Below are positions 739 to 7,585 of a DNA stretch of 9,131 nt, in pieces. The stretch's first letter is position 1. Each line of letters begins with the position of its first letter. The DNA is from Oscillospiraceae bacterium. Lineage in GTDB: Bacteria; Bacillota_A; Clostridia; Saccharofermentanales; Saccharofermentanaceae. Location: assembly GCA_902803365.1 (NCBI GenBank), contig CADCPU010000262.1, forward strand, positions 1 through 9,131. Reading direction: 5' to 3'. Below the pieces are notes generated by a model. That model was not told the DNA's origin and made no database searches. It worked only from the letters and a program-made list of their open reading frames with translations. The translations under genes were made by a program, and so were the position numbers.

Positions 739-772
739 TTTGAGTTGTTTTTTCATCAAGTGTGATAAAATG

Positions 773-781
773 TGCTATAAT
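773..781 (+). promoter_or_regulatory. Extended -10 promoter (TGCTATAAT) for the parvulin-like foldase gene
   Basis: The sequence TGC followed by a perfect TATAAT (776-781) is an extended -10 element of the housekeeping sigma factor type. The best -35 candidate is the weak TTCATC at 752-757 (18-base spacer), and extended -10 promoters tolerate a poor -35. Transcription would start near base 788, giving a leader of about 25 bases that contains the GGGAG ribosome binding site at 801-805. The site lies in the 73-base gap after the MATE gene stop. Confidence 0.6.
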
Positions 782-811
782 TCACGCAATTCGAAAAAAC
801 GGGAGAACAAT

Positions 812-2311
812 ATGAAGAATATATCCAAGGCGCTTATCAGCGCTGTTATGACATTTGCTCTTTTGGGCGGTAATCTTGTATGCGCAGACATCATTGATTT
901 CGATGAGACAACTACAACTGCTGATCAGACTGTGGAATCAACAGCTGAGTCAACAGCTGAGTCAACAGCTGAATCAACGGAAAAACCGGTGGCTCAGACG
1001 AATGAAAATGGCGAGTATACGATCGAAGGAAAAACATTCGAGACTATGTACGGAAGCCAGCTCGGTGTATACCTTAATCATCAGTATTACTATGATCTTA
1101 AGGAGATCCCTATCTCTGAGGCAAATTTTTATTTTATCCATACATTTTCGGATATGTCTCAGACAGCGATGCAGGGTTCTTATCCTGTAACATCCGAGGG
1201 ATTTATCGATCTTGCTTATGACCTTCCTAATGCAGAAAACGAAGGTCTGTCTTATTCATATTTTGGCGAATTTTTCAAGGAATATGCTGAAAATCAGCTC
1301 CTCAGCACTTATATCGTACTCGATATGGCTGAAGAGGACGGCATTGTCCTGTCTGATGAATATGTAAGCATGATCGATGGTTACATGGATACGCTCGTAG
1401 GTATCGCAGAAGGCTACGGACTTACGCTCGATCAGTACCTGCAGATCTTCTACGGAGAAGGTTGTGACGGTGAAACGTTCAGAGGTATCATGGAACGTTA
1501 TTATCTCTCATCGGTTTATTCCGAAGAATACATCAATAAGTACGAGTTTACTGATGATGAGCTCTATGTGCCTTCGGTCGTTCATGCTCTCTTTGCACCT
1601 GAGGATGCTTCGCAGGATTCATTGGCTGCGGCTAAGAGTGCTGCTGAGGATTTCCTCGCGTCATGTACTTCACCTGAAGATGTCAAGACAAAAGGAACTG
1701 AACTTGCTCAGAGCGGTGTCGTCAAGGAATGTGCGGATTATACCGTTTCCAAGGGTGTATTCGTATCCGAGTTTGAAGATTGGGCATATGATCCTTCACG
1801 TAAGGAGGGAGACCTCGGCATAGTTCAGACTGCATACGGTTATCACGTTATGGGTTACTATGGTCTTGGTGAGATCGATGACAGCGAGAAGCAGAATATT
1901 GCCCTCAAGGCATTGAACGACGAGGTCGGTTCGATCGCTATGTCCGATGTTCATGAATTCTATACAAACGACACTATTGAAAAGCCTGTACAGGTCGCAC
2001 CTGCTGAGAATACGGAGACTTCCGAGACAAGCGAGCCTGTGATCTCTCTTCCTCTTGATGAAGAGGGAAACATCTCTCTTGAGACAACTGCAGGCGAGGA
2101 AGCTCAGATCACTGCAGAGCCTATGAAGACTCCTAAGTCGCTGAGCGTAACGAGAAAGGTAACTATCGCTCTTGCAGCGATCGTGCTCGTAGCGATCATC
2201 GTTGTTGCTATCGTAATGGTTGCAAAGAGCAGAAAGCAGCAGGAAGCAGTCATCAAGGCTGCAGGAAAGCAGAAGCTGCCGGATGATGAATCCGAAGACG
2301 ACGAGGAGTGA
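812..2311 (+). CDS. Secreted, C-terminally membrane-anchored parvulin/SurA-like peptidyl-prolyl isomerase (foldase)
   Basis: This is probably an extracytoplasmic folding helper (PrsA/SurA type) acting on exported proteins at the membrane surface. I chose the ATG at 812 (499 residues) because GGGAG lies 6 bases upstream and a signal peptide follows directly: basic start, hydrophobic core, likely cleavage after V-C-A (residue 25). The longer frame back to TTG at 740 would include the promoter. Residues 42-56 are an E-S-T-A repeat linker. Residues ~70-245 resemble the helical chaperone domain of clostridial SurA-like proteins. Residues ~255-350 are parvulin-like, with His258 in 'VVHALF', then 'FEDWAYDPSRKEGDLG' and 'QTAYGYHVMGYY' containing His345. 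A Thr/Glu-rich stretch leads to one transmembrane helix (~450-471) and an acidic tail. The first half of the parvulin fold is degenerate, so isomerase activity is less certain than a chaperone role. The cardiolipin synthase gene follows after 50 bases with no terminator visible. Confidence 0.8.
   Translation: MKNISKALISAVMTFALLGGNLVCADIIDFDETTTTADQTVESTAESTAESTAESTEKPVAQTNENGEYTIEGKTFETMYGSQLGVYLNHQYYYDLKEIPISEANFYFIHTFSDMSQTAMQGSYPVTSEGFIDLAYDLPNAENEGLSYSYFGEFFKEYAENQLLSTYIVLDMAEEDGIVLSDEYVSMIDGYMDTLVGIAEGYGLTLDQYLQIFYGEGCDGETFRGIMERYYLSSVYSEEYINKYEFTDDELYVPSVVHALFAPEDASQDSLAAAKSAAEDFLASCTSPEDVKTKGTELAQSGVVKECADYTVSKGVFVSEFEDWAYDPSRKEGDLGIVQTAYGYHVMGYYGLGEIDDSEKQNIALKALNDEVGSIAMSDVHEFYTNDTIEKPVQVAPAENTETSETSEPVISLPLDEEGNISLETTAGEEAQITAEPMKTPKSLSVTRKVTIALAAIVLVAIIVVAIVMVAKSRKQQEAVIKAAGKQKLPDDESEDDEE
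935..979 (+). repeat. In-frame 12-base tandem repeat (three full units plus a partial one)
   Basis: Three consecutive units of GARTCAACAGCT (935-946, 947-958, 959-970) are followed by a 9-base partial copy. They encode E-S-T-A repeats in the linker just after the signal peptide of the foldase. Units differ only at GAA/GAG. Because the unit is 12 bases, gain or loss of copies keeps the frame and only changes linker length. Confidence 0.85.
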
Positions 2312-4787: not shown

Positions 4788-4829
4788 CTTAATGAAGTTT
4801 AGCAGAAAAAAACGGATCGGAGACCAAGA

Positions 4830-6179
4830 ATGATCAATAACCTTTTGGACAAACTTTTGGTACTTTCACAACTCGAACTGTGCAACAAAGAACGGGCTTC
4901 GATCGTTACGGAACTTGAACGGCTCCAAGAGTTCATTGGAGTCATAAGAAATGCAGAGGTCTTATCGGATATCAAGTTGTCTGATGCAGGGGCTTACTGC
5001 GGAAATGCCGAGTATTCCAAGATCATCTATCCTGACAGCTGCGATACAGATTGTTTTATCGAAAGATTCGACGAATCTTATGACAGCGTAGCAGTAAAGG
5101 ATAACATTCTCATAAAAGACAAGAACATAACGGCGGCTTCAGATATGCTCAGAGATCACATCGCAGCTTATGATGCCGTATGTATCGGAAAGCTTAAGTC
5201 ACAGGGAATGAGCTTCGCCGGAAGGACCAATATGGATGAATTTGCCATGGGGTCTTTTTCTGATACCGGTATTTACGGAAGAGTAAACAACCCGTTTGAT
5301 CTGCAGAGGACGGCAGGAGGGTCTTCCGGCGGAAGTGCCGCTGCGGTCGCAGGCGGGCTGTGCAGATGGGCTCTCGGAAGCGACACGGGCGGATCTGTCA
5401 GGCTTCCTGCATCTTATTGCGGTATCGTCGGACTTAAGCCGACATACGGCAATGTCTCAAGGCACGGTCTTATAGCTTATGCATCTGCCTTTGATCAGAT
5501 AGGCACGATGGCAAGGACACCTGAGGATGCCTTGGATCTTTTTGAGATGATCTCAGAGAGACGATCTGACGAAGGCGACGGCAGGATCAAGAGGATACTG
5601 ATACCTCGTGACCTGACGGAAAAGTCATACGCATCAGATCTTATCTTCGGACTTCCGAGGGTGATGGGGATCAGTGACGTGAAGGTTTTCGATATGCCGT
5701 GCATGGATGAACTTGCCGCGTGCTACTATGTCATTGCCTGTGCTCAGGCATCTTCCAATCTGGCTCGTTATGATAAGGACAGATACAGAAAGAGGAGCGA
5801 AGGCTTCGGCTCTGAAGTCAAAAAGCGCATCATTCTCGGTAACTATGTGCTGTCAGAAGGTTTTTATGATGATTACTATAAGCGTGCGCTCGATATCTGC
5901 GGCGCTTTAAGATCTCTCTTTGATAAGATCACGGATCCCGAGACAGCGATCCTCATGCCTGTATCTTCGACTCTTCCTGTGAGATGGGAGGATCGTGATC
6001 AGTATAAGGCTTATGGTGACGATGTATTTAACGTGCCTGCCAATATCCTCGGATATCCGTCTCTCGCTTTCCCTGTCGGAATGCTTGGCGGACTTCCTTC
6101 AGGTGTGCAGCTCATGGGTCATCCTGGTTGTGAGAAGAGGCTCTGCGAAGCGGCGGAACTGTTTTATAAGGGGGCATAG
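4830..6179 (+). CDS. gatA: Compact GatA-type amidotransferase subunit with a GatC-like N-terminus (apparent GatC-GatA fusion)
   Basis: GatA is the glutaminase subunit of GatCAB. It releases ammonia from Gln so that GatB can convert mischarged Asp-tRNA(Asn) or Glu-tRNA(Gln). The body is a clear amidase-signature protein: K90 in 'AVKDN', S165 in 'AGGSSGGSAAAVA', nucleophile S189 in 'GSDTGGSVRLPAS', then 'GLKPTYGNVSRHGLIAYAS'. The K-S-S spacing (75 and 24) is the same as in ordinary GatA. R333 ('EVKKRI') and D398 ('GDDVFNVPAN') match residues I recall as contacting glutamine in Staphylococcus GatA. Unusually, residues ~1-50 ('LVLSQLELCNKERASIVTEL' and following) read like the GatC helical hairpin, while the normal GatA opening helices are missing. 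The region between S189 and R333 is ~36 residues shorter than usual, and conserved 'AEASSNLARYDG' is 'AQASSNLARYDK' (Q306). The product is 449 residues against about 485. The start ATG has GGAG 7 bases upstream. gatB follows 2 bases after the stop. Confidence 0.9.
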   Translation: MINNLLDKLLVLSQLELCNKERASIVTELERLQEFIGVIRNAEVLSDIKLSDAGAYCGNAEYSKIIYPDSCDTDCFIERFDESYDSVAVKDNILIKDKNITAASDMLRDHIAAYDAVCIGKLKSQGMSFAGRTNMDEFAMGSFSDTGIYGRVNNPFDLQRTAGGSSGGSAAAVAGGLCRWALGSDTGGSVRLPASYCGIVGLKPTYGNVSRHGLIAYASAFDQIGTMARTPEDALDLFEMISERRSDEGDGRIKRILIPRDLTEKSYASDLIFGLPRVMGISDVKVFDMPCMDELAACYYVIACAQASSNLARYDKDRYRKRSEGFGSEVKKRIILGNYVLSEGFYDDYYKRALDICGALRSLFDKITDPETAILMPVSSTLPVRWEDRDQYKAYGDDVFNVPANILGYPSLAFPVGMLGGLPSGVQLMGHPGCEKRLCEAAELFYKGA

Positions 6180-6181
6180 AT

Positions 6182-7585
6182 ATGTATGAAGTAATGATCG
6201 GACTTGAAGTCCATGTTGAGCTCCTGACGGAACATAAGATCTTCTGCGGATGCAGGAACAGTTTTACGAGACAGATCAACAGTAATACCTGCGAGATCTG
6301 CACGGGACTTCCCGGAGCTGTCCCTGTATTTAACCGCGAGTGCATAAAGCCTGCAGTTACCGCAGGCAAGATCTTGGGCTGCAGGATAAACAGCAGATCT
6401 TCTTTTGACAGGAAGAACTACTTTTATCCGGATCTTCCGAAGGGGTACCAGATCACGCAGTTTTACGATCCGATATGCGGAGAGGGCAGCATATACCTTC
6501 CTGTCTCTGATAAGACGATAAGGATCAGGGAGATACACCTTGAAGATGATGCCGCCAAGATATTAAGAGATGAGAACGGCATCACGGTAGACTATTGCCG
6601 CTGCGGTGTCCCTCTTATCGAGATAGTCACATACCCTGACTTTGTAAGCGGGGAAGAGGCTGTCGAGTTCCTTGATATCTTAAGAAGAGACCTTCGTGCC
6701 TCGCATGTTTCCGACTGTAAGATGGAGGAAGGCTCCATAAGGGCCGATGTTAACCTGTCCGTCAGAAAGCCCGGGCAGGAGCCGGGTACCCGTACGGAGA
6801 TGAAGAACCTCTCATCGTTTAAGTCTGTCCTGAAAGCATGTGAGTATGAAGCTCAGAGGCAGATCAGCGTGCTTGAAGAGGGCGGCACTATAATCAGGGA
6901 GACCAGAAGATTTGATGAAGACAACGGCGTGACGTTGTCCATGAGGAGCAAGGAGGATTCAGCCGATTACAAATACTTCCCCGAGCCTGATATCCCTGAT
7001 GTCATCGTAGAGGAGCAGGAGATCTCCGAGATCTTTTCTTCCATGCCCGAGCTTCCGTCGCAGAAGCAGAAAAGGTTTGAGGAGATGGGCGTCAGAAGGG
7101 AAGATGCGTATAATCTCTGTACCGAAGATCATATAGCGGAGCTTTTCGAGATAGCAGCCGAAGTGTCATCCGAGCCGCAGAAGACGGCTTCGTTCATATT
7201 GACCAATTACCTTAAGCTTTGGAGGGACAACCCTGTAAAGGCTGAACCCGAAGCTGTCGGAAATATCGTAAGGCTCGTCTGTTCCAAGACCATTACGGCT
7301 TCTTCTGCCAAGACGATACTTGAAGCGATATGTGAAAACGGCGGGGATCCCGAGATCTATGCCAGTGAACACGGTCTCATACTTGAGCGTTCGGTCGATG
7401 CCGTAAGGGCGGCGGTCGATAAGGTCTTTGAAGCGCCCGAGAATGCCAAAGCCGTTAAAGAATTCTACGAAGGCAAGGAGAAGGTCAGGGGATTTTTGAC
7501 CGGTAAGGTCATGAAGGAGACGAAGGGAACGGCGGATCCTGAAGTCGTTTCTGAAATTCTTGATGAGAGGCTATTTCGCAAATAA
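6182..7585 (+). CDS. gatB: Asp/Glu-tRNA amidotransferase subunit B
   Basis: GatB binds the mischarged tRNA, phosphorylates the side-chain carboxylate of its Asp or Glu with ATP, and transfers ammonia delivered from GatA. The protein has 467 residues, close to the usual ~475. The cradle domain begins with 'VMIGLEVHVELLT' (E9, H11) and a four-cysteine zinc cluster (C22, C24, C37, C40). It continues with 'FDRKNYFYPDLPKGYQITQF', 'IHLEDDAAK' (H119, E121), 'GVPLIEIV', 'EEGSIRADVNLSVR', 'EMKNLSSFKSV' and 'DYKYFPEPD'. The C-terminal tRNA-contacting tail ends in 'GKVMKETKGTADPEVVSEIL', as in typical GatB. Oddities are C139 and C141 in 'DYCRCG', where nearly all GatB proteins have DYNRAG, and Ala for Gly in 'DAAK'. 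An AAGGGGG ribosome binding site lies in the end of the preceding gene, so translation is probably coupled. No terminator is seen after it. Confidence 0.95.
   Translation: MYEVMIGLEVHVELLTEHKIFCGCRNSFTRQINSNTCEICTGLPGAVPVFNRECIKPAVTAGKILGCRINSRSSFDRKNYFYPDLPKGYQITQFYDPICGEGSIYLPVSDKTIRIREIHLEDDAAKILRDENGITVDYCRCGVPLIEIVTYPDFVSGEEAVEFLDILRRDLRASHVSDCKMEEGSIRADVNLSVRKPGQEPGTRTEMKNLSSFKSVLKACEYEAQRQISVLEEGGTIIRETRRFDEDNGVTLSMRSKEDSADYKYFPEPDIPDVIVEEQEISEIFSSMPELPSQKQKRFEEMGVRREDAYNLCTEDHIAELFEIAAEVSSEPQKTASFILTNYLKLWRDNPVKAEPEAVGNIVRLVCSKTITASSAKTILEAICENGGDPEIYASEHGLILERSVDAVRAAVDKVFEAPENAKAVKEFYEGKEKVRGFLTGKVMKETKGTADPEVVSEILDERLFRK

What the first reader, a model, noticed from the sequence alone, without database searches (positions are those of the whole stretch)
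4830..5099. Apparent GatC-GatA fusion in which the GatC-like hairpin replaces the usual first helices of GatA
Seen: the 89 residues before catalytic Lys90 do not contain the usual GatA opening (the 'S-x-E-L ... A-x-x-x-R-I ... N-A-F' helices). Instead residues ~6-45 ('LLDKLLVLSQLELCNKERAS' and on) follow the GatC pattern: L-A-x-L-E-L, then E, then x-x-E-L-x-x-I-x-x-F. No separate gatC lies next to the genes; upstream is an unrelated minus-strand gene. Known: GatC is normally a separate ~95-residue protein that wraps around the GatA-GatB interface. Inference: this gene makes a two-polypeptide amidotransferase with GatC function built in, at the cost of the GatA N-terminal helices. A swap rather than simple end-to-end joining is unusual.
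Basis: partly seen in the sequence, partly recalled or inferred. Interest (0 to 1): 0.72.

Follow-up and report, generated by a model that had tools for sequence, protein, structure and literature searches.

The report
GatA enzyme with built-in GatC hairpin
In a small lineage of clostridia-like bacteria, the small helper protein of an enzyme that finishes glutamine and asparagine tRNAs appears as just its first two helices, fused onto the front of its big partner, and no separate copy was found in four related genomes.

Summary
Window ORF 4830-6179 (449 aa) is a GatA-type amidase whose first ~44 residues are a GatC helical hairpin; gatB follows at 6182. The window protein alone is borderline (TIGR00135 E=0.22). 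Its family of 12 sequences is not: profile-profile probability to GatC is 96.8% (score 57, against at most 19.7 in 150 shuffles and 17.3 in 52 decoys), and the first four PDB hits are GatC or GatF chains. In four related genomes a profile of free GatCs finds one place only, the start of this gene; in two sister genomes with separate genes it finds only the free gatC. Eubacterium sp. has a related fusion (whole GatC plus a similarly shortened GatA). The four genomes also carry AsnRS, AsnA and AsnB (4/4) and GlnRS (3/4), so the enzyme looks dispensable for Asn/Gln coding, which is unexplained. Best reading: a two-chain GatCA-GatB tRNA amidotransferase; activity untested. New variant of a known kind.

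The parts
4819..4823 (+). GGAGA, ribosome-binding-site-like, 6 nt before the ATG
   Evidence: read directly from the sequence
4830..4961 (+). residues 1-44: GatC-like helical hairpin
   Evidence: hhalign family vs GatC prob 96.8%, score 57 vs <=19.65 in controls; PDB profile hits 3h0l_C, 3kfu_G, 4n0h_F, 2df4_C; AF2 helices 2-13 and 19-40
4962..5045 (+). residues 45-72: divergent linker in place of GatC's interface-crossing loop and C-terminal strand
   Evidence: HMM matches of the members end at GatC position 57 or before; AF2 pLDDT means 61-68 for residues 51-80
5046..5069 (+). residues 73-80 (DTDCFIER): remnant of GatA's first strand ('N-A-F')
   Evidence: AF2 strand 76-78; weak hhalign match (prob 10%) of residues 61-80 to GatA N-termini; structural alignment to GatA chains begins at model residue 69-71
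5085..6176 (+). residues 86-449: GatA amidase core; K90, S165, S189 match the Lys-cisSer-Ser triad (triad positions recalled)
   Evidence: PF01425 E=8.2e-91; TIGR00132 349 bits, cut-off 481; K90, S165, S189 invariant in 12 of 12 rows
6182..7585 (+). gatB, 467 aa, starts 2 nt after the gatCA stop codon
   Evidence: PF02934 E=5.6e-107 and PF02637 E=1.3e-28; TIGR00133 474 bits over cut-off 314.8

Best explanation
The gene encodes GatCA: a truncated GatC (its N-terminal helical hairpin only) fused in frame to a GatA that has lost its own first helices. With the GatB made from the next gene it most likely forms a two-polypeptide glutamine-dependent tRNA amidotransferase. The GatA core would release ammonia from glutamine and pass it to GatB, which activates and amidates the misacylated tRNA. 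The tethered hairpin would clamp GatA to GatB as free GatC does, without the GatC belt. Shown: the domain make-up, the conserved active-site residues, the partner gene, and no second gatC found in four related genomes. Inferred: origin by an in-frame deletion from within gatC to within gatA in an ancestor whose gatC and gatA overlapped, as in sister genome G490; assembly; activity; tRNA substrate.
For: GatC identity of the hairpin. Genome-wide, the only match at E<=10 of a 37-sequence free-GatC profile is this N-terminus in 4 of 4 member genomes (E 1.3e-7, 4.0e-5, 1.6e-4, 3.2e-3), while 2 of 2 sister genomes match only at a free gatC. Pfam GatC hits, free or fused to AspRS, pass the cut-off in 154 of 188 genomes of the order and in none of the 4 members. 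The 12 rows are one clade in the GatA-core tree, 100/100, bootstrap not fully settled, and the 5 GatBs available are one clade, 100/99. Gene order cls-type PLD, vanY(-), gatCA, gatB is shared by the window and four relatives. K90/S165/S189 invariant in 12 of 12. Sister G490: the last base of gatC is the first base of gatA.
Against: The window sequence alone is borderline for GatC. The GatC belt and its invariant Arg/Asp are absent. Member genomes carry AsnRS (4/4), AsnA (4/4), AsnB (4/4) and GlnRS (3/4), so the usual need for GatCAB is not evident. The GatBs of the clade depart at 8 of 98 otherwise conserved columns. Completeness of the four genomes is not known, and the window's own genome is not held.
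Confidence: 0.72

Rival explanations
1. The hairpin is not GatC but GatA's own first two helices, shortened and drifted to a GatC-like pattern.
For: Short-N-terminus GatAs with a helical-looking start right before the N-A-Y strand exist, for example the MITLKEAL type; some score up to 9.3 bits with the GatC HMM.
Against: hhalign to 131 ordinary GatA N-termini: prob 10%, and only to the strand region; to 29 short-type GatA N-termini: prob 2%. The leading PDB profile hits are GatC/GatF; no GatA chain is among the 10 hits at E<=10. No free gatC was found in the members. A ~30-residue linker separates hairpin and strand.
Confidence: 0.04
2. A decaying GatCAB: since AsnRS, AsnA, AsnB and GlnRS make it dispensable, half of gatC was lost by deletion and the fused gene is on its way to loss.
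For: Apparent redundancy; long branches in the clade and its sister in the GatA and GatB trees.
Against: Frames are open and K90/S165/S189 invariant in all 12 rows, down to ~43-46% identity to the window; gatB is kept beside it in the window and in 4 of 4 member genomes. That suggests long-standing selection; no dN/dS was computed.
Confidence: 0.1
3. A repurposed amidotransferase: GatCA-GatB amidates another substrate, or only corrects rare Asp-tRNAAsn or Glu-tRNAGln made by the synthetases. (Overlaps with the best explanation, so the odds do not add up to one.)
For: Redundancy as above; loss of the GatC belt; GatB changes at 122, 125, 129 and 151, in the stretch that holds the MEED and LIEIV motifs (Fisher p 0.03-0.07, uncorrected, related sequences).
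Against: GatB still matches both Pfam domains, including the C-terminal one, and is over the TIGR00133 cut-off. Other divergent GatBs depart from conserved columns about as often (up to 13, members 10-14).
Confidence: 0.22

Closest known systems
Bacterial GatCAB (S. aureus 2df4, A. aeolicus 3h0l)
   Same: GatA amidase core, GatB, and a GatC hairpin matching in register
   Different: Two genes instead of three; GatC belt and its invariant Arg/Asp missing; GatA opening helices missing
Yeast mitochondrial GatFAB (4n0h/4n0i, PMC4027206; passages read)
   Same: A divergent GatC-type subunit with the hairpin; the structural match to yeast GatA starts at chain residue 13-16
   Different: GatF is a separate protein with its own N-terminal domain and keeps the encircling part
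M. smegmatis gatC-gatA fusion mutant (PMC7541841; abstract, section list and one results section read)
   Same: GatC fused in front of GatA
   Different: Selected mutant in which an insertion removes the gatC stop codon and fuses GatC to GatA; linked to mistranslation. Here the fusion is natural, shared by a clade, and lacks GatC's C-terminal strand
Eubacterium sp. GatC-GatA fusions (P0193/L031 579 aa, P0195 617 aa, P0194 376 aa, partial)
   Same: GatC in front of a GatA lacking its first helices and starting at the same strand ('NAFI', 'NIFI')
   Different: Whole GatC incl. R-E-D motif and C-terminal strand, long linker; different lineage in the GatB tree
AspRS-GatC fusion (PRK12820 type, NF009460)
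   Same: GatC joined to a partner of the same pathway, in the same order of bacteria
   Different: GatC at the C-terminus of AspRS, followed by a gatA with an ordinary opening

Membership tests
GatA (TIGR00132 / amidase signature) | Amidase signature core with Lys-cisSer-Ser triad | tested here: met
   PF01425 E=8.2e-91; K90, S165, S189 invariant in 12/12 (triad positions recalled)
GatA (TIGR00132 / amidase signature) | Score over the NCBIfam equivalog cut-off (481.1 bits) | tested here: not met
   349.2 bits; 307-358 bits in four relatives
GatA (TIGR00132 / amidase signature) | Ordinary N-terminal helices before the first strand | tested here: not met
   hhalign to GatA N-termini prob 10%, strand region only; structural match to GatA chains begins at model residue 69-71
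GatC (PF02686 / TIGR00135) | N-terminal helical hairpin | tested here: met
   At family level. Member by member it is weak: TIGR00135 for 9 of 10 N-termini at E<=1, best 4.2e-5 (cut-off 47.1 bits; the scores shown are 23 or less); PF02686 for 2 of 10, best 0.1
GatC (PF02686 / TIGR00135) | C-terminal belt with invariant Arg and Asp (R64, D66 in S. aureus, PMC4027206) | tested here: not met
   R66 and D68 invariant in 37 free GatCs; profile matches stop at GatC position 42-54 in the member genomes; R-x-D at a comparable place in one relative only (L129, read by eye)
GatC (PF02686 / TIGR00135) | Separate ~95-aa protein | tested here: not met
   No free GatC found in 4 of 4 member genomes; window genome not held
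GatCAB tRNA amidotransferase | GatB partner encoded with GatA | tested here: met
   gatB at 6182-7585 and next to gatCA in four relatives
GatCAB tRNA amidotransferase | Glutamine-dependent transamidation of Asp-tRNAAsn or Glu-tRNAGln | not testable with these tools
   needs biochemistry
AspRS-GatC fusion (PRK12820) | GatC fused to AspRS | tested here: not met
   The window fusion partner is an amidase

The most novel reading that the evidence does not exclude
A natural two-chain amidotransferase that works with only the GatC hairpin and without the GatC belt, kept in bacteria that do not need it for Asn or Gln coding, and therefore turned to another task (correction of mischarged tRNA, or amidation of a new acceptor).
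Probability: 0.25. Interest if true: 0.8.

Novelty: new variant of a known kind. Interest (0 to 1): 0.52.

Why it matters
If the enzyme is active, it separates the jobs of GatC: the hairpin would suffice for assembly, and the belt with its invariant Arg/Asp would be dispensable. Such a minimal two-subunit enzyme is a natural test of why GatC exists. It also gives a clade in which GatCAB looks redundant (AsnRS, AsnA, AsnB, mostly GlnRS) yet has been kept, so what else GatCAB does can be asked directly. In the listings of five paper searches (open-licence PMC only, lists capped) the only gatC-gatA fusion whose title or abstract I saw is the M. smegmatis mutant; I saw no natural one of this build.

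Tried and rejected
Single-sequence HMM searches of the window N-terminus were inconclusive (Pfam IL5 E~0.04 and GatF E~0.1; NCBIfam biotin synthase E=0.089); I did not rest on them. The GatA-core tree places the Eubacterium fusions next to the window clade plus its sister (99/97, bootstrap not settled), against the GatB tree, which puts L031 with Lachnospiraceae (96/90). The branches are long, so I treat two origins as likelier but not shown. AspRS was looked at by eye in five genomes ('RDLGG' type); what that means for tRNA specificity rests on recall and I draw no conclusion. Structural matching aligned the models from residue 65-73 on for nearly all listed rows; residues before that are barely tested, and only plant FAAH rows reached further in (from residue 2-16). 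So the position of the hairpin on the GatA-GatB surface was not determined; no complex could be predicted (single chains only). Foldseek also ranked GatA chains first. The clustering of GatB changes at 119-155 (4 of 8; Fisher p 0.03-0.07 for three choices of range) is suggestive at most. My note wrongly says 5 of 8, and my note wrongly calls the M. smegmatis mutant a deletion (it is an insertion).

Full report
WHAT IS THERE. ORF 4830-6179 on + encodes 449 aa and is followed 2 nt after its stop codon by gatB (6182-7585; PF02934, PF02637, TIGR00133 474 bits). Pfam Amidase begins at residue 87. TIGR00132 gatA gives 349 bits against a cut-off of 481. Residues 1-86 have no recognised GatA opening. 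Alone they are borderline for GatC: in Pfam only IL5 (E~0.04) and GatF (E~0.1), in NCBIfam no GatC at E<=1 with 90 residues and E=0.22 with 86.

THE FAMILY. A protein search gave seven relatives that align over the whole length including the N-terminus (P0001-P0007, 98 to 46% identity) and a fragment (P0008). After them scores fall from 358 to 309 bits; most of the other listed hits cover about 80% of the query, and four that cover 90-97% (P0036, P0041, P0051, P0116) have ordinary GatA openings. A profile search of the same database added none among the 120 best listed. In 391 genomes drawn from the class of a Lachnospiraceae genome one member was found, G339. In the 188 held genomes of its order four were found: G499, G525, G528, G339 (518-769 bits, next 440). 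The 12-row alignment A3 has about 10 distinct members, since P0001 is nearly the window protein and L127 nearly P0004. The window and the four relatives share the order cls-type PLD, VanY (minus), gatCA, gatB, then a CNNM/CorC-type gene; in the relatives a gene that reads like rpoB lies a few genes further on (relatives' neighbours named by eye).

THE N-TERMINUS IS A GatC HAIRPIN. (a) NCBIfam gatC is the only hit at E<=1 for the N-termini of P0004-P0007 (E 0.0057, 7.4e-5, 1.3e-4, 0.013); P0003 has none. Of ten N-termini nine list TIGR00135 at E<=1; in Pfam seven list GatF and two GatC. (b) A GatC HMM built from the fetched loci found three of the four member proteins among all ORFs of 60 aa or more of those loci (E 4.6e-7, 8.2e-5, 1.3e-4; G499 not at 1e-3). 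With a GatC-only HMM the 12 N-termini score 9.8-29.4 bits; among 184 other GatA-type proteins the best is 9.3 bits, so window (11.3) and P0001 (9.8) are close to that background. (c) hhalign, 12 N-termini against 93 GatCs: probability 96.8%, score 57.0, window residues 1-44 on GatC 1-46. Controls: 150 column shuffles, maximum 19.65; one reversed 15.7; 52 real segments of GatB and GatA, maximum 17.3. The eight rows outside the window subclade give 96.1%, the four inside 86.3%. (d) A profile of ten N-termini against 177,635 PDB sequences puts GatC, GatC, GatF, GatC first (E 0.00097, 0.0017, 0.0032, 0.027); the next, ribosomal protein S2, has 0.88. (e) Against 131 ordinary GatA N-termini hhalign gives 10% and aligns only the strand region; against 29 short-type GatA N-termini 2%.

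NO OTHER gatC FOUND. A profile of 37 free GatCs (no fused one) matches, at E<=10, one place in each of the four member genomes: the start of gatCA (E 1.3e-7, 4.0e-5, 1.6e-4, 3.2e-3). In the two sister genomes G490 and G491 it matches only a free gatC (1.4e-18, 1.5e-19). With Pfam GatC, 154 of 188 genomes of the order pass the cut-off, AspRS-fused GatCs included; of the four members three have only a weak match (0.28-0.94) and G499 none; for G339 that weak match is the gatCA start. The other 30 of the 34 genomes below cut-off were not looked into. Completeness of these genomes is not given, and the window's own genome is not held. The only full GatA-type gene found in the four is gatCA; G528 has one further amidase that is not GatA by score (215 bits), and G525 and G499 have one partial match each below the cut-off.

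SHAPE. AlphaFold2 models of the window protein (pLDDT 76.6, pTM 0.83) and of the G525 protein (72.7, 0.81) show two N-terminal helices (2-13 and 19-40; 4-11 and 17-38), a poor linker and the amidase core. In the window model there is a strand at 76-78. Alignment of that model to GatA chains begins at model residue 69-71 and chain residue 30-35 (yeast GatA 15-16), so the first strand appears kept and the helices before it are not seen. The position of the hairpin against GatB was not determined. GatC's later part is missing: R66 and D68 (numbering of the first row), invariant in 37 free GatCs, have no counterpart in the window protein.

HISTORY. GatB tree of 47 rows: the five fused-clade GatBs form a clade (100/99) whose sister is G490+G491 (99/98). 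GatA-core tree of 94 rows: 12 members one clade (100/100), same sister; bootstrap not fully settled. In G490 the last base of gatC is the first base of gatA. An in-frame deletion from within gatC to within gatA would give the observed chimera in one step; this is inference. A second natural fusion appeared: Eubacterium sp. L031/P0193 (579 aa), P0195 (617 aa) and a partial P0194, with whole GatC, a long linker, and a GatA that also starts at 'NAFI' or 'NIFI' just before the core. The GatB tree sets L031 with Lachnospiraceae, the GatA tree sets these fusions next to the window clade, so independence is likely but not shown. Of 254 other GatA-type proteins fetched with a recognisable motif, 46 have 52 or fewer residues before it (a few are fragments; the set is not random), so GatA's opening helices look dispensable more widely.

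WHAT IT IS FOR. K90, S165 and S189 are invariant in 12 of 12 (triad recalled), so an active amidase is expected. But the four member genomes have AsnRS over cut-off (4/4), AsnA beside it (4/4), AsnB (4/4) and GlnRS (3/4, G499 none). In Bdellovibrio, which has both synthetases but neither Asn synthetase, GatCAB is thought kept for making Asn; the same paper notes that most bacteria with AsnRS and GatCAB also have an Asn synthetase (21% of genera), where GatCAB may not serve Asn (PMC4206432, passages read). So the odd point here is GlnRS on top of these. The redundancy is also seen in sister G491, which has a free gatC, so it does not by itself explain the fusion. GatB in the clade departs, in at least 4 of 5 rows, from 8 of 98 columns that are at least 90% conserved in 40 other GatBs, four of them between 119 and 155; other divergent GatBs depart about as often. 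In modelling of M. smegmatis GatCAB, GatC's C-terminal hairpin packs on a GatB hairpin near the tRNA CCA end, and fusing GatC to GatA was modelled to loosen it (PMC7541841, section read). The clade has lost that GatC element altogether, so altered tRNA handling is a testable expectation.

VERDICT. The architecture is real and well supported as a family. It is a new variant of GatCAB: two genes, hairpin-only GatC at the head of a shortened GatA. Activity, complex and substrate are untested, and the redundancy is unexplained. Literature: in the capped listings of five searches in open-licence PMC I saw no natural fusion of this build; subscription papers were not searched.

Noticed in passing
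L031 368-2107 (Eubacterium sp. RUI433); P0194, P0195: A second natural GatC-GatA fusion: whole GatC, long linker, GatA lacking its opening helices; the source names P0193 and P0195 simply as subunit GatA.
   Followed up: partly
Same order as the window family.
   Followed up: partly
G039:C25:1405-1620 (class sample): A GatC match in a 545-aa open frame in a genome that also has a second GatC; what it is fused to was not looked at.
   Followed up: no
genomes G499, G525, G528, G339, G491: GatCAB-type genes together with AsnRS, AsnA and AsnB (5 of 5) and GlnRS (4 of 5): the tRNA pathway looks redundant. G491 has a free gatC, so the redundancy is not tied to the fusion.
   Followed up: partly
window 5766-5819 (about residues 313-330): The family lacks a loop of roughly 8-25 residues that most compared GatAs carry between 'RYD' and 'EGFG'; P0052 is also short there.
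   Followed up: no
window gatB residues 122, 125, 129, 151: GatB positions at least 90% conserved in 40 other GatBs are changed in 4 or 5 of the 5 fused-clade GatBs.
   Followed up: partly
L135 2953-4419 (G528): A second, full-length amidase-signature protein in one member genome, best NCBIfam match a general amidase; function not pursued.
   Followed up: no
window 740-2311: Probable PpiC-type rotamase protein (PF00639 E=7.9e-5) with a C-terminal membrane segment by eye; similar genes sit before the PLD gene in the relatives.
   Followed up: no
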